From positions 36,733,501-36,797,500 of the forward strand of contig NC_080567.1 of the NCBI RefSeq assembly GCF_030253575.1: 64,000 nt of DNA, given 5' to 3'. The translations under genes and the position numbers were made by a program. This DNA comes from Rhododendron vialii (lineage: Eukaryota > Streptophyta > Magnoliopsida > Ericales > Ericaceae). Of the stretch, positions 13,057 through 49,337 are shown one piece after another; positions within the stretch are counted from its first letter, which is position 1; every line of letters starts with the position of its first letter. The notes below the pieces were generated by a model. The model did no database searches, had not been told where the DNA came from, and saw only the letters and a list, made by a program, of their open reading frames with translations.

Positions 13057-14411
13057 CTAGAGAACGGAAGGTGATGCCACCCAAATGAGATTATCAGCTG
13101 GGAAAAAATGGCACACAGGTGATCCCCCCGGCTGAGTCCCGAGCATGCGAAACGCCGCGTGATCGGGGTCCCACTGAGATGTATCCACGTGGCAAACACC
13201 CGGAGCCTCCACTCTCTCTCCATTTTCCCCACCCAGCAAAACCTCAAACACCTTGTGGTCTCCATCTTTGACATGGCAATAGAAAACTGCATAAGGGTAG
13301 GGCATGGAGTGACATGCCACAATTTCAGGGCTCAAGATCCCATTTGGCTTTTCCAAAACTGTGTAGTTTTGGAAAGCTGCAGTGTGCCTCGAGAGGAGCT
13401 TGGTGGTCAGGACTCTAAACTGGGTTCCCAACCCGAAGACGCCACGCGTTGAGTCGAGCATGGATTCCAGGGAGGTAGCACAGAACTTTGTCTCTCCTCT
13501 GAGGGGTGGAAGCTCACACTGGGACAGGGTGTGTTCCATTGCTTTGGCTTGTGGGGAGTGCTTGGGAAAGGAAAAGAAATCAAGGAGATTTGGGAGTTGG
13601 GATGAGGAGAAAGGAATTGAGTCAGATTCTTCCCTAGGCAGGAGATGAGGGTAGGTGGAAGGGGATTTTGTGGAGAAATATATGGGAATTGATTTTCCAA
13701 CTTTCAGGTCATTGGTAGTGAAGAAAATGTTCTCATCTATGGCAGCTTGTTGCAGATCATGCATCTCTTTGTTAATCTCCCTGGAGCCATTTGAATGGGT
13801 GCAGCAGTACTATAATCACACCACAGCAGTTCATTTAGTCTCCAACCAAAACAAAACAATCCTTGTGGAAATTTTGCATTCAAAACAACAAGAACCATCC
13901 ACGGCCCGATTCTGAGGCCGTGTTTGGATCATGGATTTATAGAGGGTTTTAACGAAGGAACAAGTTTGACGAGGGGGAACGAAAGAAACGAGAGTTTAGT
14001 GTCGTATCTTATTCTTTTTGGCCTTGCCATTTTCTGCGTGATTCTCTCGACGATTCTCTAACCCGGACTGGGAAAAAAATGAACTTTCTCTCAAGTACGA
14101 AGCCGCGATGGATCAAGACTAATACAAATTATACAATGGATTGATATAGGTATGGTATCTTGAAATAGTGGCACTTTTTTGTTGTGGAATTTGTAATGTT
14201 TTCTGTTAATCTAACGAGAAAGGGGAAGATGAGAACAAAAAACAACAGGCAGAAAAACAATAGAGAGAAATCAAAACACTAAGAAGTGAAGAACAATGAA
14301 AGAAATACCCCCAACAAGGATAAAAGGGTCCTAAGAAAAATGTAGAGTTACCTGGGAAACAAGTAGTAGAACATGGAAGAGGAAACTGAAAGAGGCAATT
14401 CTATAACCCAT
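13057..14411 (-). CDS. BURP-domain protein, USPL1-like (pair 1)
   Basis: Two exons on the minus strand: 14352-14411 (20 codons, signal peptide [20 protein letters not shown]) and 13057-13809, phase-0 intron, 270 aa. The whole C-terminal part is a BURP domain: [43 protein letters not shown], then the invariant Cys-His array as CH-X10-CH-X26-CH-X25-CH, ending [11 protein letters not shown]. This array and spacing are complete. USPL1-type BURP proteins are small secreted or vacuolar plant proteins of seeds and vegetative tissue; the biochemical role of the domain is still unsettled. It lacks the YW...TPMP segment and repeats found in RD22 or polygalacturonase-1 beta types. It is the diverged relative of the BURP genes at 22.9 and 45.8 kb, and the next gene to the right (18.7 kb) is an organ-specific protein in divergent orientation. 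The acceptor at 13810 is the best candidate; a few residues at the exon junction are uncertain. Confidence 0.88.
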
Positions 14412-14693
14412 CTTTTATCTTCTCCCCAAGATCTAAATGGAATGGACAGAGCTATAAAACTTAACTGGTTATGGTCCTTATGGAGTTGAGATCAGCCGAA
14501 GAAGATTTTCTAAGAGCAATAAATGTTGGGAAAGTCTCCCGTAGATGATAGCACTAAGGGGAGAGGTAGATCGAAATTGACCTTAGAAGCAATAGTGCGC
14601 AAGGATTTAGGCTTACTGGATATTACGGAAGACGATGCTCTCGATAGAGCTCGATGAAAAACACGGATTCGACCACAATTGATTGAGATTTAA

Positions 14694-15073
14694 GGCTCGG
14701 TTTGGTTTGGTTACTAAATGTTCAGAAAGTTTACAACCAAGCACAAAAATGCATGCACAACATTCACGTTAATGTGTTAATGTGTGCGGCTCACACAAAT
14801 CCAAAAGAGCATTGCTAGGAACACAGTTATGGAAAGAGTTGTATTCGAAACTATTCGATGCACGCATACACACATACATCGTATGGTTCTAAACAAATTG
14901 TTGTCCTGGACTTTTCCGATCCATAAATATGAAGTCAAACACACCAAAATTTAATCAGTTATTACTCTCCTTGCTTTGACAATTGAAAATGCTTAGCTAA
15001 TCACTACGTTATCAAATTCCTCATTTTCTTTTAACGTTTGTTGCTTTCTCCAATTGGTCGAACCAAACAGAGC
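14694..15073. mobile_element. MITE-like element
   Basis: The left end GGCTCGGTTTGGTTTGGTT and the right end GGTCGAACCAAACAGAGC are imperfect inverted repeats of the kind seen in many plant MITEs, about 380 bp apart. No target duplication was resolved and no coding frame is present. Confidence 0.4.
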
Positions 15074-15829
15074 TCTCCACAGGATAAACTACTAGACTTC
15101 CTTTTTAATTTTAATTTTTTTTTTATAATAAGGTGCTTGCAAACTTTTTCTCTTTATCTTTCCCCCCTTTTTTTGACCTTCAATCCCTTTCATGTGCCCT
15201 AATGTTGACAATTTTTTTTGCTTTTGCTACTCTTTTTATTTTTTATTTTTATGCAGAGTGTTCTAGGTTAGTGTGCGTGTACCTCGAATTAATCCTTACA
15301 GCTCTTTCCACAATCTTTTCACATGCTTGCGCGTTGTGGTGAGATGGCTTCAAAAGTTACTAAAAAAAAATCGAACATGAGAAGCAAACTATTCCTACTT
15401 TGTAATAGGTTTTTAGGCCACTGATAGATACTTGTCTAGTTCTACGAGTCAACCGCCCAAAACCAATCAGATTTATGCATTTGTAACAGGAAAGGATATG
15501 TTAAGGAATCTAGCACATTAAAACTGAGATAACCTACAGAAAAAATTCCTCTTTTTCTGACCAATTATATCCAGCCGGCCAAACATATCTTTGTCAAACA
15601 TAAGTTACTTAATTGAATCTGGTGGTGGGTAGTTATTATCTAGGGAAAAATCAAGAAATATATCATTACCAGTTGTAGAAATAGATGCATTTTTTAATGT
15701 CATAAACAGTAATGCCTCAATGGAGGATATCATTTCCGTTTCTGGTGGTTGAAAATATAATTTGCCGACAAAGGCACCAAGTGCAATTGTAACATCAACC
15801 TAAATTCTGAACTATTCTTCCTGAAAGAA

Positions 15830-15990
15830 TTGTGAGGCCCAATTTAGTCCACATCGGGAAACAAGTAGAAGTAATATATAAGTGATTCCAACGAGTTATT
15901 GTATAACTGAGGTTAATTTTTTAAATCACTTGATTAGACTAAAGGATAGCAAATCAACTGGGCTGGGTTTTTACAAGAATGTCATATATA
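15830..15990 (+). repeat. Dispersed repeat, copy b (LTR/TRIM-like)
   Basis: The segment starts TGTGAGGCCCAATTTAGTCC and contains CACATCGGGAAA, AACTGAGGTTAATTTTTTAA and GATTAGACTAAAGG. It matches the order of motifs at 12719-12940, with substantial divergence. The GGCCCAATTTAGTCCACATC opening is typical of short plant LTRs; borders are approximate. Confidence 0.4.
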
Positions 15991-16529
15991 GATTACTAAT
16001 ATTTTTAGATAACATAATTTTGATCAATCCAGTTGCGGACTAGCAATGGATCCGATTTTGAAATCTGGTCAATAGCGTGGACCTAAAATGAAAATTGAGA
16101 CAACGTCTCATATGACTTGTCCCCATAACGGAGGTTTTGACTTGAAACATTAGAGGGAGCAAGCTCCTAATTTCAGGTCCTGGGACATCTTAGGTCCCAG
16201 AGTCCCAGAGTCCCTGTTCCCTTTTCTTGTTCACATTTCAGTTCCATCTCAACACACTAACCACGAACACGATCCAAAATCTTCTCTTATTGCAAACTGT
16301 ATCTTAGCTCATAGCACAAAAATCCAATTCTATGAAGTCAAACACCCACAGCCAATGTCCCTTTCATGTGCCCTAATCTTGACAAAGCCCTTCCTATCAC
16401 AAATCATGGGAGGAAATATTGATAAGCACTAGAAAGATTCTATTTTATTGTGGCCAAGTAAACTAGCTGACTAAACTCTCTAAAATACGTGTCATCAAGA
16501 AGTCCCCAGAGAAAGTCCCCTTGTACGAA

Positions 16530-16609
16530 ATGAAATGGTATTGCCTAAGTCATTTTTTAGCTTGGTGCAATGAAATGGTATTGCCCAAGTCATTTTTTAG
16601 CTTGGTGCA
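16530..16609. repeat. 40-bp tandem duplication
   Basis: Two adjacent 40-bp copies (16530-16569, 16570-16609) begin ATGAAATGGTATTGCC and end TTTAGCTTGGTGCA, with one difference between them. Confidence 0.93.
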
Positions 16610-17214
16610 CTATCAAAATGCCAAGAAGTAGCAATACTATTGCACCCATTTGCTGTCATTTTGGCACAACTTCAAGTCCAAATCATGAAATTAAACTCAT
16701 CTCTTTTACCGATGTAATGAATGACTTAGATGATGTGACAAGTTTAGCAATTACAAACCTTGATGCTCAATTTTGACACTAAAACGGCATTGCCAAAATT
16801 TGGCATCGCATTCGGCCCAAGAGTGGAGAGTGTTTTGCAATTAAATAATGCGAAATATGATTTTAGCATGAAATTTAGCACAAGGCTGAACTAGCTCTAA
16901 AACATCAATCGTTTGTAGTGTGAGTGCGCATGCGCGTGATTGAGATAGAGGGGGGAGAAAAGAGCATATAGGATCACTCCAACGTCCCTCTTTCACATCT
17001 TTCTTTAAGTCAAAACGTTTGATGTGTCAACTTGTAGCCAATGGATTACACCAAGAGTTGCAACCTAATAGTACAGTAAAGGCAACATGTGAAGAGGCAC
17101 AAAAGAGGTTTAATGAAACACGTTGTCATTATAGGGGGGCATTAGAGGTGGGTTCCTTCACTTTTTTCTCTAATCTAAAAGGGTGAAGGAGGGGGGTGAC
17201 CAGATGTAACGGTC

Positions 17215-17420
17215 CTTCTTTGGGCATGACTCACACCAAGCCCCCATGAAAGAGACTCAAAACCTATAAGTGTGCACCGCCCCATCCAAGAACCAAGAAG
17301 GCAATAGGCAGATCATGAGATTCAAACGGGAGCGAGGAGGCGTCGGCACGCTTCGAACCCATGACCACATAAGAGCCAAACGCAACGGGAGTAACCATCC
17401 CTTCTAGAGCTTACTATTTG
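17215..17420 (-). mobile_element. SINE-like element
   Basis: Read on the minus strand this begins ATGGTTACTCCCGTTGCG and has a B-box-like GGGTTCGAAGC at about 17352-17362. This is the layout of a tRNA-derived plant SINE promoter. The remainder has no frame. The A-box is weak and the 3' end is not clearly defined. Confidence 0.4.
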
Positions 17421-17842
17421 TGTTGTTTCTAGTAAAACAATCGGACACAGCGGCTTCTGCGGTTGCAAATCAATGGAATCCAGTTTCACTGTTAGTTTCT
17501 GATATGGCCAAAAACACTTTTGTGTATCTATTCAGCTGGCTTTGTCACTAACTAATACATGGTTTGAGAGGATGATCAGCCACACTGGGATTAAGACACG
17601 GCCCAGACTTGTATTAACAAAAAAAAAATAAAAATGACCAGCGTACCTAAAAGTTCAGAGCATCTCGTTACTCATGTCAGCATTCTCACTCCGGAATAAG
17701 AGTCAAATGCCGAAGATGAAGACTACGGTTGAATAAATATTGTCTGCTAATGCATTTAAGGCTCTGTTTGGCTTGGTTAAAATAAGTTTTGTATGAGCTT
17801 TTTTTGCACCAAAGAGTTCACTGGATCATATACAATAGAAAT

Positions 17843-18090
17843 GTTTTTTTTGACAAGTGTGCTTATGCGCACATTGACTTGTTCCTAGGAGACAAATTCC
17901 ACCGTCCACTCGCAAGGGACCTATTAAACTTGAGGCAAAGTCTTCTATGGACCGGCAACACAAGAGTTAGATAGCACCTTTCGAATATGAGACCTTGGAG
18001 GGATTGAACCCTTAAATCTGAAGCCTTGACCACCATACATGAGAGAGAATGGAGAGGATTGGATCTCCATGGCAGCCATGTCTTTTTCAC
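17843..18090 (-). mobile_element. tRNA-derived SINE
   Basis: On the minus strand there is a B-box GGGTTCAATCCC (plus coordinates 18000-18011). It is followed by the body motifs GTGTTGCCGGTCC, GCCTCAAGTTTAATAGGTCC and CTTGCGAGTGGACGG, which I recognise from plant SINE families, and an A-tract at the end (plus-strand T run near 17845). The borders are approximate to within about 20 bp. It lies in the spacer of the first BURP/organ-specific pair. Confidence 0.6.
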
Positions 18091-18597
18091 GTTAAACTAC
18101 ACCTGTTCACCAAATGTCCAGATGAGGTGAAGTATAGTAATCTAAGACTATTGAAATTTGGTATAAGCAACCTCTAAAAGGAATACCAGCTCCAGCTTTC
18201 CTAATTTATGCTTACAAAAATATATTGGTAATTATTAAGGAGGATACTAATCTTAGGAAAGAAAACACACACAAAAAAAAGTGAAGGAATCATCTTTACC
18301 GAGTTCTCTGCTTCGAAATGACAGTACCCATATCATCTCATAAATTTTCTTCTGCTTGTACCATTAGTCTTTTGCTTGAGGCGGTGTTTGGATCATGGAT
18401 TTATAGGGATACATGGAGGAGAACGAAAAGGTTGATGGAGAGATAAGATGATATAGTGAAGAAGCTACTTTTATTTTATGATCCGAGATCCAAACCTAGT
18501 GTAACGATTTACGAATCCTTGACATGGACCAAGGACCATGACATAATCACCCTTAAATACACACAAAACTATATCAATATGGCCTCTTTGAAATGGT

Positions 18598-18607
18598 CTA
18601 TAAAAAC
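18598..18607 (+). promoter_or_regulatory. TATA box of organ-specific gene 1
   Basis: CTATAAAAAC lies about 70 bp upstream of the ATG at 18673, a normal distance for a short plant leader. Confidence 0.6.
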
Positions 18608-18672
18608 CAAGTCAGAGATTGAAATGGTCCAACAAAATAAAGCAAGTGTAGGTTCCAACAAGGGAGGAAGAG

Positions 18673-18788
18673 ATGAGAGCTCTATCTGCCTTCTTCGTCC
18701 TTTCCTTGCTTTTCTTGGTAAGCACTCTGCTTTCCTGGAAAGCCATGCCTTATTGTCAAATTACATGCATATGTACATAAATAAATAA

Positions 18789-18832
<44 letters not shown>

Positions 18833-19228
18833 GATATCAATTTGTGTATACATGTAGCTATGTTTATTTAAATCCTTCTTGTTTAGAGTTTATCAAGCAT
18901 CTCATTCTAGTTCCTGAATGTTATTTCAATAAGAAAATCAAACACTCCTGTGAATTCTCCTTCTTCTTTTGCTTGTGGCCAGTTTTCCAGCTTCTGTGAT
19001 GCAAGAAAAGATCCAACAGACTACTGGAATAGCATAATGAAAGGCGAGCCAATGCCTGAGTCAATTCAACAACTGGTACTCCATCTAGATCCGTCATCTC
19101 CATCCAAAGAGAAGATCAAAAAATGGCACTCATCTTCTGGTAGTGTAAACATGGACCACTTCAGAAAGGATTTCGATACAAGGCCAAATGCTATAATCTA
19201 TCACAGCCACGGCGAGCCAAAAAATTGA
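18673..19228 (+). CDS. Organ-specific protein (S2/P4-type), short single-repeat member (pair 1)
   Basis: Two exons, 18673-18717 and 18983-19228, phase-0 intron, 96 aa. Exon 1 encodes the hydrophobic signal peptide MRALSAFFVLSLLFL. Exon 2 begins FSSFCDARKDPTDYWNSIMK and continues GEPMPESIQQL, the conserved N-terminal segment of the plant organ-specific protein family (DUF2775). A single copy of the family's repeat motif (FRKDFDTRPNAIIYH) follows near the C-terminus. The duplicated relatives at 25.5 and 48.5 kb have four and five motifs. Family members are small, secreted and expressed in particular organs (originally shoot and pod forms in pea); molecular function is unknown. The frame is intact. 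It is divergently oriented to the BURP gene at 13-14.4 kb, with about 4.3 kb between them. Confidence 0.85.
18778..18826. repeat. Microsatellite (AAAT)n(AT)n in organ-specific gene 1 intron
   Basis: Several TAAA units run into about 16 AT dinucleotides shortly after the 5' splice site of organ-specific gene 1. Confidence 0.95.
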
Positions 19229-19539
19229 GGCCTAAGGTTCCCGATTATAGTAAGGCACAAAAGGAGCTGATATATATGCCTCTTTTCTGAGGGAGGTTGT
19301 GATTAATAGTGTATGTTTAGTTGAAATTTGAAATCATGTCTTGTTTTATCGTGGGAAATACCAATCAAAGGTATTTTGTCTCAGGCTTAGAAGATGGGGT
19401 ATGGGTTGAGCCTGTTTGTGTTTTGTGTCCCATGAGACTTTGCAACACCTGTTTTTGAGTGTAGCTTCTCCAGCAGTATTTGGGAGGCAATATTACACAG
19501 ATTTCAGATTCAAAGGAGGGATGAGGCATCGGACATGGA

Positions 19540-19900: not shown

Positions 19901-22865
19901 AAGAGTGTAGTTTGTCTCTGCTAGAATTCGTTGGCCTTCAACTGATCATCTCTACGAAGTTCTAAAATATTGAAAAAACACCGCCTGGGTATATTTTTCC
20001 CTACCAGCCTTGGCTCTTGGTGCAGCCATCATCATATTCTGTACACTAACACATATTCCAATTATAACTGTGCATTTATTTTCTGATGTTCAGTGTTAGT
20101 TTTGGAAACAGGAAGGCTTAATTAGAGATTTTGAGGAAAGAGATTATAAAGCGTTTTGCAGCCTCTTTCCAGCCTCTCCCTGATGCTAGAAACTCTGGAA
20201 CTGGGTCTAAGATATTTTGTGAGTCATCTGTGCTTGCCAATGGCTTTAATGGCTTCCATTCGTGGTATAATTATTCCTGCTCTATCCCTATGTTAAGCAT
20301 CCAATTCTTCATATGTGTCCGGAAGCAGACAACAACAGTGGCAATGACCTATTCAAGTGTTTTCCAGAATAGACATTGCTTGCGCATTACATCCAGACTT
20401 ACTAGTAGACCTGTTTCATGTTACCATACCTGATGATAGTACTGTTTATGAAACAAGAAGATGCTTTCAATTCCACAAGATAATCAAGCCAGACTTATCT
20501 TACACCACATGCCTAGTGAAAGGCACTTGCACTCTGAGGTTGTGTTTTGTATGCTAGAATGATTTTGGAAAGAAATGGAATGATCGATCATTCATTACGG
20601 CCCACATAAATAAAGTATCATATCGACCAACAAACTGGCATGCAAGGATGTTGGACTTGCAATATCGATATTTCAGTACATCAGCTGATACAATTTACTG
20701 TCATACTTTTATATCGACCGAGACCAATACATGGTCGTATGAGCAATACAGATACGCATCCTGATACCCCTACGAATCTGGACAGAAAGCATGATTTCTA
20801 AAATGGAAATTCGAAAACGATCAACTGGTTCAAAAACATGTTAAAACCACACTTAGTGCTCCTTGTCAGCTTTTCTATGTATTATTACCTTTTCTATGTA
20901 TTCTTCATTCTGCTCAAGGCCAGTCTCCTTGTCAGCTTTAAGTTCCACTGCAACTACTTCAGGAAAAAATTCCATTAAACAATGCTCGACTCCCATCTTC
21001 ATTCTCGTTACCCAACTTGGACAGGAGTCTCATGCTCCTTGCAACTTCAACCTCATAAAATCGCCATCGATCTCGTGTAGACATTAACACCATCAGCAAT
21101 TGAGATTTTGCATACCTGAAATGTGATTGGCCAGAATCAATTTGCAGTGACGGTCTTTTGTGACTGAAGATGTAGTGAGATAAAATATGCATACACGGAG
21201 GGAGAGAGCTCAGAGAGAGAGTAAATGGGGACGACGAACTGTTAGAGACGATCTTCCTCGCCATTGGGGCGACTGAAAGGACGTCGACCGGGTTTTCTTC
21301 GGACCACGCCTGTTCAAACGATGGAGATCCATGAAAACGAGTCGTCGAATTTCGTTCAGACTTCGCATCTCCAAACTGAGAAGTCCTACAAGACATGTAA
21401 TTGGCAAATTTCAACCTCGTTCTGGGTTTATTTATTGATCGAAAATGTTCAATTTGAAGATCATGTTCATCGGATTTCAACCAATACATAATCGAAGACG
21501 ATTCTTGTGGATTTATTTTTGTAAAAATAGATTTGGCCACACTTGATGAAACCCACTTCATTGAAAACGACGACGCGTCTCTTTAAAGAACTCATTCCAG
21601 ACCTACGAAGTCTAATTGGTAAAATTGCAAACTCGTGCAGGGTTCATTTCTTGATCGAGACTGTTGGAGTTGTAGAGATTTTCAAGAAGATAAACTGTGT
21701 TGAAGATCGAGTTAATCGGATATCAATTGGTACATAATCGGAGATGATTTTGTCAAATTTATTTTTCTGAAAATAGACTTGGCCAAACTTGATCATGTCC
21801 ACTCCATTACGGAATACAAATTCGCTCCTCCGAGGGAAAGGGAGGTGGTGGGGAGAGAGAAAATGTGGCGGTTCGTTCGTCAGAGGAAGTTATGGAAGGA
21901 AGGAATTGATGGGATCGATCTCATTGCCATAGTAACAGACAGGTCTCTTCTAATCTTCCGCTGTTTGATTTTGTATACTAGCTTTCATTGTTCTTAATCC
22001 GTTGATGAAGGTGTATTTGCACCCATTAAGGTGTATTTGTAGAGAATTTTGAGGCTTGAATTGAGTGGATCCCTAGCCTTGTTGGCTTTGGCTTCCTCTA
22101 TGCATGTATAGAGTAGCATTTTTTTCGTGATGCCTTTCATTTCTTCAACAAATCTCTGTGTAAGACAATGATACCTTCCCAACTGTGATGATGATGTCTG
22201 TTGCATTTCTTTTGGGACTACTGAGTTTCTTGTGCATCTCCAACTTTTGGTGATGGAATCAGTCATATTCTGTCTTCTAACCAAACCGAGCATTGAGTCC
22301 CTATCCATTGTGTTCGGCGACATGAATCCTATTTCTCCTATATTCTGTCTTCTATCTTTGGAATTTCATGCGAACTGGTCGTGACCGTATTTTTGTGTAT
22401 TCAAAGATGTCTTCTTAATGGTACCAGTCATATAAGATGTCTTCAATTTTTTGGTACTCTAGGTGAAAAGTGAAGGCCTTCCTTAGAACATCGTTTCCAC
22501 AATTCCACTCAGCATTTCCAGTGGTTTGATTAACTCAGGAAACATAACTCAATGAGTCATCGTATTATACCAGGTAGAAACCAAATACGGCTTATTCGGT
22601 AGAAGAAGCTGAATGGAAAACAAAAAAGGAAAGCAAAGTTAGCAGTTTTTGGTATGAAACTATTTCTTCAGGGAAATACGAAAAGATTGATTTCTATAGG
22701 CCATATGTTGTCGTACCCAATGATCCGGATTATTTCACTATATTACACTCTTGATCACAGAGTACTTAGCATAACACGATATTTGTTTCAATGGACACAA
22801 GCACTAGTAAGATGCTAGAACAAAGAGAATGAATGATCACACTCAACAATAAGACTACGATCAAA

Positions 22866-24258
22866 CTAGGATGCAATCCACACGAGATTATCAGCTGGAA
22901 AGAAATGACAGACTGGTTTGGACCCTGGCTCGATCCCCAGCACCCGAAAGGACACGTGATCTGGGCTCCACTCAGACGTGTCCAGGTGGCAAACCGCAAC
23001 AGCTTCCACTCTGTCTCCATTATCACCACCTAGCAATACCTTGAACACCTTGCTTTCACTCTCTTGGTAGTGGCAGTAGAAAATTGCATAGGGGTAAGGC
23101 ATGGTGTGACATGCCACCATTTTTGGAGCTGAAATTTCTTCGGGTTTTTTCAAGATAGTGTAATTCTGCAAAAGTGTTGTTGATTCTGTGAAGTGGGTAG
23201 TGGATAGTACTTGGAATTGGGAATTGAATCCGAATATTTCATTTACAAAATCAAGCATCGATTCCAAGGATGTGGCACATAACTTGGACTCTCCCTTTAT
23301 TGGTTTCATCTCACATTGTCTAAGTGTATCTTCCATGGCTTTGGCTTGTGGAGAGGCTTGTGAGAAGGAAAAGATTTGAAGAAGGTTTGGGAGTGATTCT
23401 AGTGAGAAAGGAATGGAATCGGATTCCTCTCTGGGTAGGAAATGAGGAGAGGTAGAGGGGTCTCTCTTTGGGAAGTAAACTGGAATTTCTTTTCCCACCT
23501 TTAGGTCTTCTATAAAGAAGAAAACCATGAGTTGAGGGTCCATGTGATCCATGTGTGATGATGGATAGGCATGACCATGCGCCATATGATATTTTTCATT
23601 AGCATCCATACTATGGAGTCGTAGAACGTTCGTATCCATAGGGATATCCTCATTCAGTGGGTGTCTTGTAGCATTCATCTTATTGTTCCCATTATAGCAC
23701 TGCACAACAAAAACTAGCATTTTATCAAGTTCTATATCCGTAGCATCGTCCTAGTAAAAAAAAATAAGTGAGAAAGCATCCAATTCATTCAAACTACAAT
23801 TAGAATATGAGAACAAGTTGTTTAAATGTTCAATCCAATGATCGTATTTAGAATCGTTCATTTGGTCTGAATTCTCTTGAAATTGAAAAAAAAAAAAAAA
23901 ATGTATGTAGTCTAATTCTGTTGTAGAGTTGAGTTCAAACTTCTCCATCTGCAATCATCATTTCATAGAGAGTTAGAGTCACTTGGGGTTCCCAGATATA
24001 ACCCCTCGTTTTTCTCTCCACTTGTTACTCCCATCTCTATCTATCTCCACTTATTATCCCGAAAACCTCCCTCAAAACCTTTACCGAACAACCTCAAAGA
24101 ATTCCAAGTTTTGCATGTTTCGTAGAAGTATATTTATCAAAGTAGCAAGAACAAGAAGAACAGCAATAGATAAAGGAGTGAATCAAGCACAGCTTAGAGA
24201 TTACCATCACAAGCAGTAGACAAAGGAATATGCTCCTTGAAACATATCCAATTCCCAT
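22866..24258 (-). CDS. BURP-domain protein, USPL1-like (pair 2)
   Basis: Best model: exon 1 at 24205-24258 (MGIGYVSRSIFLCLLLVM, signal peptide) and exon 2 at 22866-23699, both phase 0, 295 aa. A short His/Met-rich stretch (YHMAHGHAYPSSHMDHMDPQ) precedes the BURP domain, whose markers are [50 protein letters not shown] and the complete array CH-X10-CH-X26-CH-X25-CH, ending FPADNLVWIAS. The open frame of exon 2 continues upstream to 23720 and a little beyond, but an in-frame stop precedes it. The acceptor TTTTTGTTGTGCAG at 23700 is strong, and the resulting N-terminus aligns with that of the pair 1 protein. An in-between open frame (23751-23954) could be an alternative exon. The protein is about 95% identical to the copy at 45.8 kb. 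The organ-specific gene starts 1.3 kb away in the opposite direction. Confidence 0.88.
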
Positions 24259-25543
24259 CTTCCTTTTTCCCTTGAAGCTCCTATGAGTTTCTTTCCTCCT
24301 TCTAAGGCCCAAGGAAACACTCCTAGACTTGAAATCTACGGCAATCTTTTGATTATCCTATGAGTTGCTCTACATTTTAAAATTTAGATAACCCTTTTGT
24401 CCACTACACGGATTAGTATTTTACTTGCGGGGCCCATGCAAATTCAACTTGTGAGGTGTAATGTTGTTATACCTTTTTCATTTTCTTTTAACATTTGGCT
24501 AGCTACTTGTTACCTTACCATTCTCCTATACAATTATTTACTTTTCTTGTTCTCATCCTTTTGAAATTCCACACGCATCTGTACTACAGCATTCTGAATT
24601 TTAATTTTGACGTTGCCTAATTAAGAACAAAACACACGACTATTCAGTAGTGCGCAATGAAATTGACACGGTTTGGTAGTTAATTATTGGTAGCTCAAAC
24701 TTTGATCATTTACCTCAAATCTTTCTTTGATCATTTACCTCAAATGTTTCATCACAGCGAGACATCGAATCCATGTGAAAACTCCCTTTTTAATATTTAA
24801 ACTATAGCTGCAATAAAATACAATATCCATTATCCAAATAATTAAGTTATCAAGACAGGCCTCTTGGACTCTTGCTCATAATGCAAAATAAAGAACACAG
24901 ATGGTTCAACTATCTTATCCGGTAATAGCATCTGTATAATTGTTCCAATAAAGCCTGGCCTCGGCTTAAACACAGCCAATGTACCTTTGGACCAACTTTG
25001 TGGTTATTGAACTTATGATCCATTTTTTGATAACTCGGTATCATCCAATAACCGACTAATCTGGAGGACCAATCCTCCCATTCACTTGCAGGGGCACAAT
25101 AAAATCCTGGACAACATAAATATTGATAGCACGCAAATAGGAATCGGAGCCCAAACCAAAGGCTTAATGAGACATTGCTTGTTAGGTGACTTCCGCTGCG
25201 CCAATCTTGGGGTTATGAAGCTGATGATCCATGCTTCCAATAATTCTGTGTATATGGATTGCAGGTATGCTGTCACCATCTTATAATAGGAAAAAAATAC
25301 TTTATCAAGGAAATAATAGCCATAGAAAAATAAATCTATGACGGATCACGAGATTTGTACCCCAACAAAAACAAGTGTTATTGATGCTTTCCTTCTACAA
25401 TAATGGACTGTTTAGAGCCAACGTGAATCCTGTGGTTTCTATTCCACCAAACAAATGTGTTCATCAATTTCCTTGTTGGTCTATATATAGCATGTGGTCT
25501 TAGAACCCTTTAGGAAAATTAAGAGAACTTGAAACAGCTAGAA
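24259..25543. promoter_or_regulatory. Shared divergent promoter region, pair 2
   Basis: This 1.3-kb interval separates the start codons of the minus-strand BURP gene and the plus-strand organ-specific gene, so it must hold both promoters. It is very AT-rich. The organ-specific side has a TATA box (TATATATAG, 25492-25500). It is conserved almost base for base with 47196-48479. A short frame at about 25083-25286 is broken upstream in this copy by a TGA where copy 2 has CGA, and is probably not coding. Confidence 0.6.
25492..25500 (+). promoter_or_regulatory. TATA box of organ-specific gene 2
   Basis: TATATATAG lies 44 bp upstream of the ATG at 25544 and is conserved at 48418-48426 in the duplicate. 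Confidence 0.65.
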
Positions 25544-26358
25544 ATGGGATCACTTTTTGCTTTCTTCATTCTCTTCTCACTTGTCCTGGTAAGACTAAGA
25601 ATACGCTAATGAGTCCATAATTGGCTATGTATAAGTACACTTTGATTCAACTTGAATTATCCCATACAAATTTATAGATAAGTGTTTGTACGTAATGTGG
25701 TAGCATTGCATTCATTATGATACGGAGCGGGCCTCATTTTGAAAGGAATGCAGTTCTACTGTCACAACATTCTGAACGCTTTTTTGAAACAATTTAGCGG
25801 CCTTATCGTTTTCATGACTGACTAATTGTTTTGTGCATCTTCATTCTGCAGTTTGGGAGCACCATTGATGCAAGACCAGACTCCGGAGAATACTGGAAAG
25901 GCGTTATGAAGGATCAACCCATGCCAGAAGCGCTTCACGGCCTACTCCCTCGGGGATCAGTGTCCCCCCTCTCCACCACCGCAAAAACCGACTGTCACAC
26001 ATCAACGGAAGCGACAAACAACGACCAAACTGCTAAAACTTACGTGAAAGACTTTGAACCGAGGCCTAGTACGACTGGCTACCACGAGGATAGTACTAAA
26101 CTAACTGGAGAGAAATCCTTTCACGATGATAGTACTAAACTAACTGGAGAGAAATCATTTGCGAACGACTTCGAGCCGAGGCCTAATGTCTCAGCTTACT
26201 CTAATGATGCTGGTCTGAAAGAGAAGAAGTCCTTTGTGAACGACTTCGAGCCGAGGCCTAATGTCTCAGCTTACCCTGATGATGCTGGTCTGAAAGAGAA
26301 GAAGTCCTTTGTTAAGGATTTTGAACCAAGGCCTAATATTTCTGTTTATGATGATTAA
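25544..26358 (+). CDS. Organ-specific protein (S2/P4-type), four-repeat member (pair 2)
   Basis: Two exons, 25544-25588 (signal peptide MGSLFAFFILFSLVL) and 25852-26358, phase-0 intron, 183 aa. The mature N-terminus has the family segment GEYWKGVMKDQPMPEALHGL. After a Thr/Ser-rich linker come four FEPRP motifs in the pattern (V/A)(K/N)DFEPRPxxxxY, spaced by charged linkers of two kinds, DSTKLTGEKSF and DDAGLKEKKSF. One linker is present twice without an FEPRP between (HEDSTKLTGEKSFHDDSTKL), the scar of an in-frame loss inside the repeat array relative to the copy at 48.5 kb. The protein ends NISVYDD. It is hydrophilic with no further membrane segment, consistent with a secreted wall or vacuolar protein. 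Function is not established for the family. Confidence 0.92.
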
Positions 26359-36648: not shown

Positions 36649-36665
36649 GTTTCTTTTGAAACTAA

Positions 36666-41015: not shown

Positions 41016-41060
41016 GAATGTTCTAAATCTCATGTTTTTCTGGATACTTGCCACGACACC

Positions 41061-41880: not shown

Positions 41881-42051
41881 TTGAGGGCGGCGAAGTGGAC
41901 GCCAGCGGAGGGGATGAGGGTGGTTGAGGCGGTGGAAGGTGGGTCGGAGGAGACGGTTGCGGCGGCAGTGAGGTTGGGGGAGGAGTTGGCTGGGAGGAAG
42001 TGGGATGGACACGTGTACGGTCAAATTCGGATGGCTGTATTTGTGGATTTG
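41881..42051 (+). pseudogene. GC-rich exon-like fragment, unrecognised
   Basis: A short island with GC content far above its surroundings has a frame reading AAKWTPAEGMRVVEAVEGGS, then EETVAAAVRLGEELAGRKWD and GHVYGQIRMAVFVDL, ending at a consensus donor (TTG|GTGAGT, 42051-42057). It looks like a real exon, but no start, partner exon or upstream acceptor is convincing. It may be a captured or orphaned piece of a gene. I cannot name the source family. Confidence 0.35.
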
Positions 42052-44481
42052 GTGAGTGTCGTCTGATTTGACGAGGAAAAAGACAGCGACGCTGATTTTA
42101 GCATTATTGTTTTGAAATAAACTACAAAAATCAAATAATGGAAATTTATGATTTAAGTTTTTTTTTTTATCAGTATCTATTTCTAGTTTGTGCAGCTATC
42201 ATTATTTTCTGTACACTAACACATTCCAATTGATAACTGTGATGCAATTTTATTTTCTGATGTTCAGTGTTAGTCTTAGAAACATGAAGGTTTAATTAGA
42301 GATTTTGAGGAAATAGATTATAAAGTGTTTTGCAGCTTTCTTTCCAGCCTCTCTCTGATGCTAGAATATCTGGCTTTCACGGCTTCCATTTGTGGTATAA
42401 TTTTTCCTGTTCTATCCCTATGTTAAGCATCCAATTCTTCATATGTGTCCGGAAGCAGACAGCAACAGTGGCAATTACCTATGCAAGTGTTTTCCAGCAT
42501 AGATATTGCCGGCGTATTACATCCAGATGTATTAGTAGACCTGTTACATGTTACCATTCCTGACGATAGTATCTGTTTATGAAACAAGAAGATGCTCTCA
42601 ATTCCACGAGATAATGAAGCCAGACTTATATTACACCACATGGCCAGTGAAAGGCACTTGCACTCTGAGGTTGTGTTTTGTATGCTAGAATGACTTTGGA
42701 AAGAAATGGAATGATCATTCATTAGCCTCTCAATGGAACTTCCATTTACCTAAATCGGTAAACGATGATCCCCTTCAACATTGTCATTTTCTAGAAAACC
42801 AAGCGTCGGAATGAGAATTGGGATGGAATGGCCATTTCATTTTAGCTTTTCAGTTGAATTGCTATGAATAAACCGTCGAACTGTTATAACAACAACGAAA
42901 CTATGCAAAGTGCAATATTTGTCAATTGAAGTTCACTAATCATGGCCGACCCAGTCCCATTCTGGGTCTTCAACATTTATGACAAAATGTCTCCCTAACA
43001 ACCCTTCTTTAATCTTGAAAGACCTCAAGTTGTTAAACAGGAAAGTACGAGTATTTTAGAACTTGAACTGCTGTAATGGATTGTATTTTCTCTCGTCCTT
43101 TCAGTGCGACAGACACCACAACAGTAGTTACACCTGCAGCTGGACCCGTGATTTGAATTTTCACCATTGACTCTTCGATTGCTACAAGTTCACCAGATCC
43201 GTCCTTTTTTCTGTCTAGGTATGGCCTCATTTTTTAAGAACCTAAATGAAACAAATGGAATGTACTTCATTGATTTGGGCACAGACAATCAAGTACACTA
43301 CAAACTATACAAGCTTCTTTATGGACACAATAAAAACATTAAATCAAGTAGCGACTCAAGAATATGTTGTTGATGTCGAGGAAAAACTTTCATAAAATAT
43401 TACCAAACTATACCAGTTTTCAGGACAAACTTTTTTTGCTATGCGCAGTGAAGCTGGTAAGACACTAAAAAGAGCTGTTCAAAATCTAGTCAGGACATTC
43501 TGCTCTCATTAAGTGTCGGCGCGCTTCTCTCTAGCTATACTATGTCCGCTCATATCTCCTCCAATAACATAATAGAGTGCACTAGAATTTTATCATCTAC
43601 AATCCTGTAGCCCTGTGTGACTCAAAATCAGGATTCTTAGTATAGAAGCGTATCGACCAACATATAAGAATTTTGGACCTCCAATACCAACATTTCCATG
43701 ACACCAGCTGATACTGTGCTATACCTGATGACGTATGGACGTATGAGCAATATAGATACATATTCCCAATACCTTATTCAAAACAATGCTGAAACTCTGG
43801 TCAAACTAAAACAAGAGCTAGGCCCATATAAATATACTTGCTTCTCCCAAGATTCATCACTTTCAAGGCATAATGTTTAACATAGATGATGAGAGGCAGT
43901 TTTTTTACCTCTAGTTTCTTGCTTAAAGAATGGAATTCTACTGCTATTACCCTTGTTCCTAAGACTAGTTCTCCCACAAATATAAGCCCAAAATCATCAT
44001 TTGCTAAACAGAGAGAGATTTATACACGATGCTAAATCAATGTTATGTTAACTCTAACCAACAACAATATACACCAGGCATACAATTTAGGCATACAATT
44101 TTTAGCCTGACAGTTAAAACCATCTCAATTCACACGGCTCAGATTGGTTAGCAGATTTTCTTCTGATAAGAAAAACCAAAGCGCTCTGTTCTGAGAGAAT
44201 CCATAGAAGCACATCTACTAAAAGAAATGAAAAGTGAAAGTTTTGGTGATAAAGACAAGAATAGGCAAAAATAATAATAATAATTCAAGCACCAACAAAG
44301 AAGATCGAGTTGAATTAAATTATGTAACATAAAATGATGAAATCCATAGCCTAATTTGAACCAGTACAATGCGGATAAAAATCGAGATTTTACATACCTA
44401 AGATGTGACCAGCCAGAATGAATTCGCAGAGAATTGACCGTCGTTTGTGACCCGAAGATGCGGTGAGATAAAATATGCATA

Positions 44482-44484
<3 letters not shown>

Positions 44485-44521
<37 letters not shown>
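44485..44521. repeat. (GA)n microsatellite
   Basis: About 18 GA units. The matching place in copy 1 (about 21195-21220) has only a short, broken run, so this tract expanded after the duplication. Confidence 0.95.
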
Positions 44522-44524
<3 letters not shown>

Positions 44525-45804
44525 TCAGAGAGAGTACATGGGGACGACGACCTGTGAGATATCTTCCTCACCTTGGCGACGTCCTTGCCTCTGGAAGTGG
44601 AGGTCCATGAAAACGACGTCGTCGAATTTCGTTCAGACTTCGCAACTTCAGACTGAGAAGTCCTACAAGACATGTAATTGGTAAATTGCAAACTCGTTCT
44701 GGGTTTATTTGTTGATCGAAAATGTTCAGTTGGTAGAAATTGACAAAAACTCAAACCTTGATGAAGATCATGTTCGTCGGATGTTAACCAATACACAATC
44801 GGAGACGATATTTGCGGATTTACTTTTGTAAAAATAGATTTGTCCACACTTGATAAAACCCACATCATCAAAACGACGCTGTCTATTCAAAGATCCCATT
44901 CCAGGAACTATGAAGTCGAATTGGTAAAATTGCAAACTCGTGCAGGGTTCATTTCTTGATCGAGACTGTTGAAGTTGTAGAGATTTCAAGAAGATAAACT
45001 TTGTCGAAGATCATGTTAATCGGACTTCGATTGATACATAATCGGAGATGATTTTGTCAAATTTATTTTTCTGAAAATAGACTTGGCCACACTTGATCAT
45101 ACCCACTCCATTACGGAATACAAATTCGCTCATCCGAGGGAAAGGGAGGGGGTGGGGAGAGAGAAAATGTGGCGGTTCGTTCGTCAGAGGAAGCTATGGA
45201 AGGAAGGAATTGATGGGATCGATCTCATTGCCATAGTAACAGACAGGTCTCTTCTAATCTTCCGCTGTTTGATTGTGTGTACTAGCTTTCATTGTTCTTA
45301 ATTCGTTGATGAAGGTGTATTTGCACCCATTAAGGTGTATTTGTAGAGAATTTTGAGGCTTGAATTGAGTGGATCCCTAGCCTTGTTGGCTTTGGCTTCC
45401 TCTATGCATGTAGCATTTTTTTCGTGATGCCTTTCATTTCTTCAACAAATCTCTGTGTAAGACAATGATACCTTCCCAGGAAACATAACGCAATGAGCCA
45501 TTGTATTATACCAGGTAGAAACCAAAGACGGCTTATTAGGTAGAAGAAGCTGAATGGAAAACAAAAAAGGAAAGCAAAGTTAGCTGTCTTTTGGTATGAA
45601 ACTATTTCTTCGGGGAAATGCGAAAAGATTGATGTATAGGCCATATGTTGTCGTACCCAATGATCCGGATTATTTCACTTTTTACACTCTTGATCACAGA
45701 GTACTTAGGATAACACGATATTTGTTTCAATGGACACAAGCACTAGTAAAATGCTAGAACAAGAGAATGAATGATCACACTCCAACTATAAGACTAAGAT
45801 CAAA

Positions 45805-47195
45805 CTAGGATGCAATCCAAACGAGATTATCAGCTGGAAAGAAATGACAGACTGGTTTGGACCCTGGCTCAATCCTCAGCACCCGAAAGGACACATGATC
45901 TGGGCTCCACTCAGACGTGTCCAGGTGGCAAACAGCAACAGCTTCCACTCTGTCTCCATTATCACCACCTAGCAATACCTTGAACACCTTGCTTTCACTC
46001 TCTTGGTAGTGGCAGTAGAAAATTGTATAGGGGTAGGGCATGGTGTGACATGCCACCATTTTTGGAGCTGAAATTTCTTCGGGTTTTTTCAAGATAGTGT
46101 AATTCTGCAAAAGCGTTGTTGATTCTGTGAAGTGGGTAGTGGATAGTACTTGGAATTTGGAATTGAATCCGAATATTTCATTTACAAAATCAAGCATCGA
46201 TTCCAAGGATGTGGCACATAACTTGGACTCTCCCGTTATTGGTTTCGTCTCACATTCTCTAAGTGTATCTTCCATGGCTTTGGCTTGTGGAGAGGCTTGT
46301 GAGAAGGAAAAGATTTGAAGAAGGTTTGGGAGTGATTCTAGTGAGAAAGGAATGGAATCGGATTCCTCTCTGGGTAGGAAATGAGGAGAGGTAGAGGGGT
46401 CTCTCTTTGGGAAGTAAACTGGAAGTCTTTTTCCCACCTTTAGGTCTTCTATAAAGAAGAACACCATGAGTTGAGGGTCCATGTGATCCATGTGTGATGA
46501 TGGATAGCCATGAACATGTGCCATATGATATTTTTCATTAGCATCCATACTATGGAGTCGTAGAACGTTCGTACCCATAGGGATATCCTCATTCGAAGGG
46601 TGTCTTATAGCATTCATCTTATAGTTCCCATTATAGCACTGCACAACAAAAACTAACATTTTAGCAAGTTCTATATCCGTAGTATCGTACAAGTCAAAAA
46701 AATAAGTTAGAAAGCATCCAATTCATTCAAACTACAATTAGAATATGAGAACAAGTTGTTTAAATGTTCAATCCAATGATTGTATTTAGAATCGTTCATT
46801 TGGTCTGAATTCTCTTGAAATTTCAAGAAGAAAAAAAAATGTATGTAGTCTAATTCTTTTGGAGTGTTAAGTTCAAACTTCTCCATCTGCAATCATCATT
46901 TCATTAGAGAGTCAGAGTCACTTGGGGTTCCTTGATATAACCCCTTGTTTTTCTCTCCACTTGTTACTACCATCTCTATCTATCTCCGCTTATTATCCCG
47001 AAAACCTCCCTCAAAACCTTTACCGAACAACCTCAAAGAATTCCAAGTTTTGCATGTTTCTCAAGTATATTTATTGAAGTAGCAAGAACAAGAAGAACAG
47101 CAATAGATAAAGGAGTGAATCAAGCACAGCTTAGAGATTACCATCACAAGCAGTAGACAAAGGAAGAAGCTCCGAGAAACATATCCAATTCCCAT
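45805..47195 (-). CDS. BURP-domain protein, USPL1-like (pair 3)
   Basis: The exon layout matches the copy at 22.9 kb: exon 1 at 47142-47195 (MGIGYVSRSFFLCLLLVM) and exon 2 at 45805-46638, 295 aa. The BURP Cys-His array CH-X10-CH-X26-CH-X25-CH is complete and the end FPADNLVWIAS is kept. It differs from pair 2 at about 14 of 277 exon-2 residues plus one in the signal peptide. These include charge changes beside the domain start (DLKVGKRLPVYF versus DLKVGKEIPVYF) and GIEP to RIEP near the last CH. An alternative, slightly longer exon 2 would begin upstream of 46638, but the AG acceptor available there in copy 1 (ACTAG) is TG here, which favours the 46639 acceptor for both genes. It is divergent from the organ-specific gene at 48.5 kb. 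Confidence 0.88.
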
Positions 47196-48479
47196 CTTCC
47201 TTTTTCCCTTGAAGCTCCTATGAGTTTCTTTCCTCCTTCTAAGGCCAAAGGAAACACTCCTAGACTTGAAATCTAAGGCAATCTTTTGATTATCCTATGA
47301 GTTGCTCTACATTTTAAAATTTAGATAACCCTTTTGTCCACTACACTGGTTAGTATTTTACTTGGGGGCCCATGCAGATTCAACTTGTGAGGTGTAATGT
47401 TGTTATACCTTTTTCATTTTCTTTTAACATTTGGCTAGCTACTTGTTACCTTACCATTCTCTTATACAATTATTTACTTTTCTTGTTCTCATCCTTTTGA
47501 AATTCCACATGCATCTGTACTACAGCATTCTGAATTTTAATTTTGACGTTGCCTAATGAAGAACAAAACACACGACTATTCGGTAGTGTGCAATGAAATT
47601 GACACGGTTTGGTAGTTAATTATTGATAGATCAAACTTTGATAATTTACCTCAAATCTTTCTTTGATCATTTACCTCAAATGTTTCATCACAGCAGACAT
47701 CAAATCCAAGTGAAAACTCCCTTTTTAATATTTAAACTATAGCTGCAATAAAATACAATATCCATTATCCAAATAATTAAGTTATCAAGACAGGCCTCTT
47801 GGACTCTAGCTCCTAATGCAAAATAAAAAACACAGATGGTTCAACTATCTTATCCGGTAATAGAATCTGTATAATTGTTCCAATAAAGCCTGGCCTCAGC
47901 TTAAACACAGCCAGTGTACCTTTGGACCAACTTTGTGGTTATCGAACTTATGATCCATTTTTTGATAACTCGGTATCAGCCAATAACCGACTAATCCGGA
48001 GGACCAATCCTCCCGTTCACTCGCAGGGGCACAATAAAATCCTAGACAACATAAATATTGATAGCACGCAAATAGGAATCGGAGCCCAGACCAAAGGCTT
48101 AATGAGACATTGGTTGTCAGGTGACTGCCGTTGCGCCAATCTTGGGGTTATGAAGCTGATGATCCATGCTTCCAATAATTCTGTGTATATGGATTGCAGG
48201 TATGCTGTCACCATCTTATAATAGAAAAAAATATACTTTATCAAGGCAATAATAGCCATAGAAAAATAAATCTGTGACGGATCACGAGATTTGTACCCCA
48301 ACAAAAACTAGTGTTATTGGTGCTTTCCTTCTACAATGATGGACTGTTTAGAGCCAACGTGAATCCTGTGGTTTCTATTCCACCAAACAAATGTGTTCAT
48401 CAATTCCCTTGTTGGTCTATATATAGCATGTGGTCTTAGAACCCTTTTGGAAAATTAAGAGAACTTGAAACAGCTAGAA
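47196..48479. promoter_or_regulatory. Shared divergent promoter region, pair 3
   Basis: These 1.28 kb between two start codons match 24259-25543 nearly throughout. A TATA box (48418-48426) serves the organ-specific gene. The longer open frame in this copy (47922-48221) is interrupted in copy 1 and has no recognisable domain. Confidence 0.6.
48418..48426 (+). promoter_or_regulatory. TATA box of organ-specific gene 3
   Basis: TATATATAG lies 54 bp upstream of the ATG at 48480, in the same local sequence as 25492-25500. Confidence 0.6.
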
Positions 48480-49337
48480 ATGGGATCACTTTTTGCTTTC
48501 TTTATTCTCTTCTCACTTGTCCTGGTAAGACTAAGAATACCCTAATGAGTCCATAACTGGCTATGTATAAGTACACTTTGAGTCAACTTGAATTATCCCA
48601 TACAAATTTATAGATAAGTGTTTGTACGTAATGTGGTAGCATTGCATTCCTTATGAGACGGAGCGGGCCTCGTTTTGAAAGGAATGCAGTTCTACTGTCA
48701 CAACATTCTGAATGCTTTTTTGAAACAATTTAGCTGTCCTTATCATTTTCATGACTGACTAATTGTTTTGTGCATCTTCATTCTGCAGTTTGGGAGCACC
48801 ATTGATGCAAGACCAGACTCCGGAGAATACTGGAAAGGCGTTATGAAGGATCAACCCATGCCAGAAGCGCTTCACGGCCTACTCCCTCGGGGATCAGTGT
48901 CCCCCCTCCTCACCACTGCGAAAACCGACTGTCACACATCAACGGAAGCGACAAACAACAACCAAACTGCTAAAACTTACGTGAAAGACTTTGAACCGAG
49001 GCCTAGTGTGACTGGCTACCACGACGATAGTACTAAACTAACTGGAGAGAAATCCTTTGCGAACGACTTTGAGCCGAGGCCTAGTGTTACTGGCTACCAC
49101 GACGATAGTACTAAACTAACTGGAGAGAAATCCTTCGCGAATGACTTCGAGCCGAGGCCTAGTGTGACTGGCTACCACGACGATAGTACTAAACTAACTG
49201 GAGAGAAATCCTTTGCGAACGACTTCGAGCCGAGGCCTAATGTCTCAGCTTACCCTGATGATGCTGGTCTGAAAGAGAAGAAGTCCTTTGTTAAGGATTT
49301 TGAACCGAGGCCTAATGTTTCTTTTTATGATGATTAA
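48480..49337 (+). CDS. Organ-specific protein (S2/P4-type), five-repeat member (pair 3)
   Basis: Two exons, 48480-48524 (signal peptide MGSLFAFFILFSLVL, identical to copy 1) and 48789-49337, phase-0 intron, 197 aa. The segment GEYWKGVMKDQPMPEALHGL is kept. The repeat array has five FEPRP motifs. Three near-identical 78-bp units (48990-49067, 49068-49145, 49146-49223) encode FEPRPSVTGYHDDSTKLTGE plus KSFAND or KSFVKD-like ends. They are followed by the FEPRPNVSAYPDDAGLKEKK type and the terminal NVSFYDD. The near identity of the three units points to recent expansion or homogenisation. The copy at 25.5 kb has four motifs and a scar of unit loss. The frame is intact, so the array changes in whole codons. 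Confidence 0.92.

What the first reader, a model, noticed from the sequence alone, without database searches (positions are those of the whole stretch)
13057..49337. Three head-to-head pairs of BURP and organ-specific protein genes
A minus-strand USPL1-like BURP gene is followed by a plus-strand organ-specific (S2/P4) gene three times: 13.1/18.7 kb, 22.9/25.5 kb and 45.8/48.5 kb. In the two recent pairs the start codons are only 1.28-1.29 kb apart with a conserved interval. The oldest pair is diverged in sequence but keeps order and orientation, so the pairing predates the block duplication. Both products are small secreted plant proteins of unknown biochemical role. A conserved divergent pair suggests co-expression and perhaps a shared function, which I do not recall being described.
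Basis: partly seen in the sequence, partly recalled or inferred. Interest (0 to 1): 0.82.

Follow-up and report, generated by a model that had tools for sequence, protein, structure and literature searches.

The report
Ancient plant cyclase and peptide-precursor pairs
Three neighbouring gene pairs in this plant each combine a likely copper enzyme that ties peptides into rings with a secreted protein that likely carries those peptides, an arrangement already described in other plants but here seen to be old and consistently paired.

Summary
In detail: three minus-strand BURP genes, each followed by a divergent plus-strand DUF2775 (organ-specific, ST/SST) gene, with clean two-exon models. Pairs 2 and 3 are a recent block copy (BURP Ks 0.07); pair 1 is old. 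The claim that the pairing is undescribed is wrong: Albornos et al. 2025 (PMC11991032) report Arabidopsis SST1 (DUF2775) beside, and most co-expressed with, the BURP gene USPL1, with similar Medicago loci, and propose DUF2775 proteins as precursors of BURP-made cyclic peptides (split burpitides). Added here: (1) in the window's own genome the four DUF2775 genes that are not truncated all face a BURP gene in the same order, and those four BURPs form one clade; the fifth DUF2775 match is a 5'-truncated SST1 copy (the C5 pair is judged on second exons only). (2) The neighbourhood (PI4-kinase, proline-rich/DUF7086, BURP, SST, RAB7, receptor kinase) resembles that of Arabidopsis SST1, and a C5 block keeps BURP, SST, RAB7. 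(3) Pair 1 has a single IIY core; pairs 2 and 3 have four and five S/T-x-Y cores, so cyclase and precursor seem to duplicate and diverge together. A shared bidirectional promoter is not supported. Product and chemistry are unproven.

The parts
13057..14411 (-). BURP1: exon 1 14352-14411 (signal-peptide-like, judged by eye), exon 2 13057-13809; 270 aa
   Evidence: PF03181 3.5e-77; CH-X10-CH-X26-CH-X25-CH
18673..19228 (+). SST1: DUF2775 protein, 96 aa, exons 18673-18717 and 18983-19228; one candidate core NAIIY at 19187-19201 (counted by hand) after RKDFDTRP
   Evidence: (PF10950 3.5e-10)
22866..24258 (-). BURP2: exon 1 24205-24258, exon 2 22866-23699; 295 aa
25544..26358 (+). ST2: multi-repeat DUF2775 protein, 183 aa, exons 25544-25588 and 25852-26358; four candidate cores STTGY, NVSAY, NVSAY, NISVY, plus a repeat remnant without a core (39-nt tandem copy, 26083-26160)
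45805..47195 (-). BURP3: exon 1 47142-47195, exon 2 45805-46638; 295 aa, 95% identical to BURP2
48480..49337 (+). ST3: multi-repeat DUF2775 protein, 197 aa, exons 48480-48524 and 48789-49337; five candidate cores SVTGY x3, NVSAY, NVSFY (78-nt repeats 48983-49243)
24259..25543 (.). interval between the start codons of pair 2; 96.9% identical to 47196-48479; TATA-like motif about 60 bp before the ST2 start codon, none matching TATA[AT]A within 1 kb before the BURP2 start codon
59350..62512 (-). RAB7-like gene (six exon pieces placed; Ras family by Pfam, RAB7 label by recall); anchor shared with the C5 block and, by the published text, with Arabidopsis RABG3E beside SST1
   Evidence: Arabidopsis from PMC11991032

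Best explanation
The window holds three tandem copies of an old two-gene cassette of the split-burpitide kind. The BURP gene encodes a secreted, stand-alone, copper-dependent peptide cyclase. The DUF2775 gene encodes its secreted substrate: an N-terminal YW...PMP segment followed by one (SST1) or several (ST2: 4, ST3: 5) units made of a recognition stretch (DF[D/E]xxP, mostly preceded by K, R or N) and a pentapeptide ending in Tyr. In the secretory pathway the cyclase would bind the Phe of the recognition stretch and oxidatively tie the core Tyr to a preceding residue; proteases would then free small cyclic peptides. Shown here: gene structure, domains, four CH motifs, core layout, pairing, and a shared neighbourhood. 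Inferred from published relatives: cyclase activity, use of these cores, co-expression, secretion. Unknown: crosslink type, product, role. The cassette seems to have duplicated as a unit: an old split separated the SST-type pair (IIY core) from the ST-type pair (S/T-x-Y cores), and the ST-type pair was copied again recently.
For: CH motifs spaced 10/26/25 in all four paired BURPs; sequence match of BURP1 to 8SY2/8SY3 (6.4e-14), 8SY2 being AhyBURP in PMC12186524. Published split cyclases act on separate precursors with a required recognition Phe and a core ending in Tyr, and often lie near them. In the four paired BURPs a Pro lies 5 residues after the first motif His (alignment), the place of ArbB2 Pro242 if His237 is that His and there is no gap (residue numbers). 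Eleven units of the form DFxxxPxxxxY were found in SST1 (1), C5 (1), ST2 (4), ST3 (5). The four non-truncated DUF2775 genes found all face a BURP gene in one orientation, and those four BURPs form one clade among eight intact BURP genes. Published: AtSST1 and USPL1 adjacent and co-expressed; Medicago SST, ST and BURP genes in one locus.
Against: No peptide product with S/T-x-Y cores is known. Phe-to-Tyr distance is 9 in the 11 units here but 11 in the two published KDF substrate peptides compared, ArbA2 and CamA1, so these cores may sit differently in the enzyme. No expression data for this plant. Three of the five distinct ST cores contain N-x-S glycosylation sequons, which would suit an ordinary secreted repeat protein. 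The structure model was too poor to use (pLDDT 36.5). Split precursors need not lie near their cyclase: a jujube one does not, so proximity is not proof.
Confidence: 0.72

Rival explanations
1. The DUF2775 proteins are ordinary secreted repeat proteins (structural, stress or reserve) that are not cyclised; the BURP neighbours share only location and perhaps expression timing.
For: Roles proposed for ST proteins include elongation, biotic interaction, abiotic stress and N reserve (start of an abstract, PMC5504553). No S/T-x-Y cyclic peptide is known. Three of five distinct ST cores hold N-x-S sequons.
Against: Consistent pairing with one BURP clade, recurring recognition-plus-Tyr layout, and proven cyclase activity of related BURPs.
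Confidence: 0.2
2. Linkage by descent only: an ancestral neighbourhood was copied by tandem and whole-genome duplication, without selection for pairing.
For: The pairs descend from each other, so four pairs are not four independent events; the interval between the young pairs is no more conserved than introns; the C5 partners are about 20 kb apart.
Against: The order survives in both the C5 and C11 blocks and, by the published text, adjacency survives in Arabidopsis. No unpaired, non-truncated DUF2775 gene was found in this genome.
Confidence: 0.2
3. Head-to-head pairs driven by one bidirectional promoter.
For: Start codons of pairs 2 and 3 are 1285 and 1284 bp apart.
Against: Pair 1 is 4261 bp apart and the C5 second exons about 20 kb. 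TATA-like motifs lie 60-74 bp before the ST2, ST3 and SST1 start codons; BURP2 and BURP3 have none within 1 kb, BURP1 one at -716. The interval of pair 1 shares only a 20-bp match with those of pairs 2 and 3, and the C5 interval none.
Confidence: 0.1

Closest known systems
Arabidopsis SST1 (At1g49310, DUF2775) and USPL1 (At1g49320, BURP), PMC11991032
   Same: Adjacent SST and BURP genes; published SST consensus ends in IIYH as SST1 and the C5 SST do; RABG3E flanks SST1 on the other side; PI3/4-kinase, PERK and hydroxyproline-rich genes are named among the neighbours
   Different: Arabidopsis has one SST and Brassicaceae lack ST; here two ST-type pairs and a SWIRM/Myb gene lie between SST1 and RAB7. 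Orientation in Arabidopsis, and the side on which each outer neighbour lies, are not stated in the text I read (figure not held).
Medicago truncatula MtSST2, MtST2, MtST3 locus with three BURP genes, PMC11991032 (discussion text; figure S4 not seen)
   Same: SST, ST and BURP genes in one locus
   Different: Pair order and orientation not described in the passages read
ArbB2/ArbA2, split burpitide pathway of coffee (arabipeptin A), PMC12186524 and PMC11253845 (passages)
   Same: Stand-alone BURP cyclase plus separate multi-core secreted precursor with KDF recognition stretch and core ending in Tyr, near each other in the genome
   Different: Hydrophobic core FLWGY; Phe-to-Tyr distance 11 instead of 9; product isolated
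ZjuBURP/ZjuPrec of jujube, PMC12871766 (passages)
   Same: Split BURP cyclase with a co-localised repeat precursor; core FPIY is hydrophobic like the IIY type
   Different: Product proven; decarboxylation and N-methylation enzymes on other chromosomes; sequences not compared here

Membership tests
Split burpitide pathway | BURP domain with four conserved CH motifs (CHX10CHX25-27CHX25-26CH, from PMC11250218) | tested here: met
   10/26/25 in BURP1-3 and the C5 BURP; PF03181 hits for BURP1-3 and C5; BURP1 matches 8SY2 by sequence
Split burpitide pathway | Cyclase stands alone, without core repeats of its own | tested here: met
   By reading for BURP1-3: short region between exon 1 and the BURP domain, no repeated Tyr core; Pfam finds BURP only. 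The C5 N-terminus was not resolved.
Split burpitide pathway | Separate secreted precursor with recognition Phe among charged residues and core ending in Tyr | tested here: inconclusive
   11 units of DFxxxPxxxxY found, plus one ST2 remnant without it; Phe-to-Tyr distance 9 against 11 in two published substrate peptides. Signal peptides judged by eye.
Split burpitide pathway | Precursor and cyclase genes co-localised | tested here: met
   4 of the 5 PF10950 places; the fifth is a 5'-truncated SST1 copy without a BURP in 60 kb
Split burpitide pathway | Precursor and cyclase co-expressed | not testable with these tools
   No expression data for this plant; published for AtSST1/USPL1
Split burpitide pathway | Macrocyclic crosslink made by the BURP protein | not testable with these tools
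   Needs enzyme assay or metabolomics
PF10950 ST/SST proteins | DUF2775 above Pfam cut-off; EFEPRPxxxxY-like repeats (ST) or one IIYH core (SST) | tested here: met
   consensus from PMC11991032. Repeats here read DFEPRPxxxxY.
Bidirectional promoter pair | Start sites within about 1 kb (definition as in PMC2648788, start of abstract) | tested here: not met
   Start-codon gaps 1284, 1285 and 4261 bp; C5 second exons about 20 kb apart. True transcription start sites are unknown, so pairs 2 and 3 could still fall near the limit.

The most novel reading that the evidence does not exclude
The pair is an endogenous cyclic-peptide system conserved across core eudicots rather than a family-specific defence metabolite. 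The SST-type pair, kept beside RAB7 and near a PI4-kinase gene in this plant and in Arabidopsis, would make one near-invariant small cyclic peptide (xIIY), perhaps a signal. The ST-type pairs are co-duplicated, co-diverged derivatives whose cyclase learned S/T-x-Y cores, a product class not yet seen. With both types side by side and 41 of 219 BURP positions separating the two cyclase types (two genes each), the window would be a ready natural experiment on cyclase-core specificity.
Probability: 0.3. Interest if true: 0.75.

Novelty: new member of a known kind. Interest (0 to 1): 0.45.

Why it matters
It gives a genome-wide pairing of one BURP clade with a putative precursor family, and an anchored locus for asking what the widespread but orphan DUF2775 peptides become. 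Both core types (IIY and S/T-x-Y) sit beside their own cyclase, so matched and swapped enzyme-substrate tests can decide whether ST and SST proteins are cyclic-peptide precursors, an open question in the burpitide literature.

Tried and rejected
Bidirectional promoter: rejected as a general feature. 'Conserved interval' as functional constraint: rejected, since it equals intron divergence. The DUF2775 match at C11:36268124-36268366 (minus) as an unpaired gene: rejected. It copies SST1 exon 2 and 3' flank (exon 2 97.5% aa; DNA pieces 92.6% and 98.1%), the homology starts inside the intron so exon 1 is not at its expected place, and no BURP was found in the 60 kb around it (tblastn, E up to 0.01; genome-wide). 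Whether it uses some other first exon was not tested. Structure prediction of BURP2 exon 2 alone gave pLDDT 36.5 and was not used. The intact C7 gene looks RD22-like and C12/C8 PG1-beta-like, labels recalled. C12b shows no repeats in its open frame but groups with C12a in the tree. The 8-row BURP tree joins BURP1 with C5 (95/100), while the root among the four paired genes stays open. Ks of BURP1/C5 (1.11) is well above that of RAB7 on the same blocks (0.46), so dates from BURP Ks are unsafe. The 60 kb of C5 gave no match at E up to 1e-6 to the open frames of the PI4-kinase, DUF7086, SWIRM/Myb or receptor-kinase genes, and no ST-type pair, so C5 shares only part of the neighbourhood.
Full report
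What was checked. The window is G000:C11:36733501-36797500 of an unnamed plant assembly with 13 contigs and 532.6 Mb. A Rhododendron is likely: PMC6907397 (passages) gives 13 chromosomes and 532.1 Mb for R. williamsianum. The totals differ and the species is my inference. All three pairs exist as described. Each gene has a short exon 1 ending at a GT donor and a long exon 2 after an AG acceptor, in frame. Pfam confirms BURP or Organ_specific in all six.

Age of the pairs. Pairs 2 and 3 lie in one recent block copy, about 20.0-27.9 kb against 42.2-50.7 kb. BURP2/BURP3: Ks 0.066, Ka 0.025; ST2/ST3: Ks 0.151, Ka 0.056. The start-to-start interval is 96.9% identical against 94.8% and 96.6% for the introns, so its similarity is recent copying. 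BURP1/BURP2 Ks is 1.44 and SST1/ST2 2.46, both near saturation.

The rest of the genome. PF10950 gives 7 matches at 5 places: three in the window, one on C5, and one on C11 about 0.48 Mb from SST1. PF03181 gives 22 matches. Both searches score only the best candidates, so they are lower bounds. By reading, nine of the 22 rows make eight intact BURP genes: three in the window, one on C5, one two-exon gene on C7, two on C12, one on C8. The other 13 rows are partial or carry stops; whether some are exons of further working genes was not resolved. The C5 BURP is minus-strand at C5:8757797-8758447 and the C5 DUF2775 gene plus-strand at about C5:8778716-8779015: the same divergent order, about 20 kb apart. 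For both C5 genes only the long exon was found; exon 1 was not located. The four paired BURPs form one clade in the tree of the eight, and C7, C12a and C8 carry other N-terminal repeats. The C11 outlier is a copy of SST1 without the homologous exon 1, with no BURP in the 60 kb fetched around it. Thus the four DUF2775 genes not seen to be truncated are all paired, with the four BURPs of one clade.

Neighbourhood. Just left of the window lie a PI4-kinase N-terminal exon (PF19274, 4.1e-7) and a proline-rich gene with DUF7086 (7.6e-68), both minus. Right of ST3 lie a SWIRM and Myb gene (52.6-54.5 kb), a RAB7-like gene (59.35-62.51 kb, minus; Ras hits in 3 of the 7 pieces of that stretch scanned; six exon pieces placed), and beyond the window a receptor-like kinase with a proline-rich stretch before it (kinase hit; PERK label by recall). 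On C5 a RAB7-like gene, also minus, follows the DUF2775 gene (C5 pieces were not scanned with Pfam). In Arabidopsis SST1 is flanked by RABG3E on one side and USPL1 on the other, with PERK, hydroxyproline-rich and PI3/4-kinase genes among the neighbours (PMC11991032 section 24, read whole; figure not held). I take the loci to be orthologous, which would put the pair before the split of this plant's lineage from that of Arabidopsis. Against a full match: C5 showed none of the PI4-kinase, DUF7086, SWIRM or kinase frames in its 60 kb, an unidentified 0.8-kb stretch like one just right of the window lies between the C5 partners, and a gene of window 8.1-11.1 kb lies on the other side and inverted on C5. 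RAB7 Ks between C11 and C5 is 0.46 over 168 codons, slightly below the Ad-beta means of 0.49-0.67 reported for five Ericales genomes, so C5 and C11 may be products of that duplication. BURP1/C5 Ks is 1.11, which does not fit neatly.

Tree. Eight BURP domains: the four paired genes separate from C7 (95/95) and from C12/C8, and BURP1 joins C5 at 95/100 (the C7 row was joined by eye). This fits an SST-type and an ST-type cyclase lineage older than the C5/C11 split, but the root among the four is open. At 41 of 219 positions BURP1 and C5 share one residue and BURP2 and BURP3 another.

Precursor layout. SST1 has one unit RKDFDTRP-NAIIY-HSH and C5 one unit KRDFDTTP-NMIIY-HSH, matching the published SST consensus ending IIYH. 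ST2 has four cores (STTGY, NVSAY, NVSAY, NISVY) and one coreless repeat remnant; ST3 has five (SVTGY x3, NVSAY, NVSFY). In the 11 units found the recognition Phe lies 9 residues before the Tyr. In the ArbA2 and CamA1 peptides printed in PMC12186524 it lies 11 before. All have Pro at +4 from the Phe; one search prints +2 for ST because EPRP has an earlier proline. ArbA2 turnover is described in the passages I saw; CamA1 is listed there as a substrate peptide and CamB1 said to be active. A third listed peptide, CamA2, has Ile in place of the Phe and was not in the script. The spacing is a real departure from these substrates.

Mechanism. BURP cyclases of split pathways are copper-dependent; in ArbB2 three of the four motif His mutants were inactive and the fourth did not express, and the substrate Phe was required (PMC12186524, passages). 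A jujube pair was shown in planta (PMC12871766, passages). The genes here meet the sequence hallmarks on the enzyme side. The substrate side is the proposal of Lima et al. 2023 (not held; known through) and Albornos et al. 2025 (discussion part 1 of 2, section 24 and passages). Precursors rich in S/T-x-Y are prevalent but correspond to no known molecule (PMC11250218, parts 1 and 2 of 4). Cyclisation in this plant is inferred, not shown.

Promoter idea. Start-codon gaps of 1284, 1285 and 4261 bp, and about 20 kb on C5, argue against a required shared promoter. TATA-like motifs stand 60-74 bp before the ST2, ST3 and SST1 start codons; BURP2 and BURP3 show none within 1 kb and BURP1 one at -716. 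The interval of pair 1 shares a single 20-bp match with those of pairs 2 and 3, and the C5 interval none. Co-expression is not excluded and is reported for Arabidopsis (z 14.1).

Literature scope. Searches: (2 papers; 9 found, 8 listed; 13 found, 12 listed; 1,205 found, 15 listed; 461 found, 20 listed; 5), in open-licence PMC only. In what I read or saw listed, none describes the pair's orientation, its genome-wide pairing or this locus. Searches were capped lists of mostly unrelated papers and Lima 2023 was not held, so absence from print is not shown.

Verdict. A true, well-read observation with a mistaken novelty claim: a new member of a known kind, a tandemly amplified split-burpitide-type cassette at an old locus.

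Noticed in passing
C11:36238001-36298000 (L015, L014, L008, L009, L012, L013): Sequence like window 21.1-22.4 kb recurs in several copies (about 82-89% identity in the longer matches), and the truncated SST1 copy sits among them; the window ORF 20959-21561 has no Pfam match.
   Followed up: partly
window 8120-11097 (+) and C5 about 8796906-8800768 (-): A multi-exon gene shared by both blocks (pieces 46-77% aa identity) but on the other side of the pair and inverted on C5. No Pfam hit for the two exons scanned; it resembles a cis-prenyltransferase subunit by recall only.
   Followed up: partly
26083-26160: ST2 carries a 39-nt tandem copy lacking FEPRPxxxxY, so it has four cores where ST3 has five: repeat number changes fast.
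   Followed up: yes
ST2 and ST3 repeats (about 26041-26349 and 48975-49330): Cores NVSAY, NISVY and NVSFY overlap N-glycosylation sequons while SVTGY and STTGY do not; glycosylation could compete with cyclisation.
   Followed up: no
window 52561-54544: SWIRM and Myb-like domains (SWI3-type gene by recall) between ST3 and RAB7; not named among the Arabidopsis neighbours in the text read.
   Followed up: partly
L021:709-1494 and C5 about 8774647-8775432: A stretch just right of the window is 77% identical over 805 bp to one lying between the C5 BURP and the C5 DUF2775 gene; unidentified, perhaps a mobile element.
   Followed up: no
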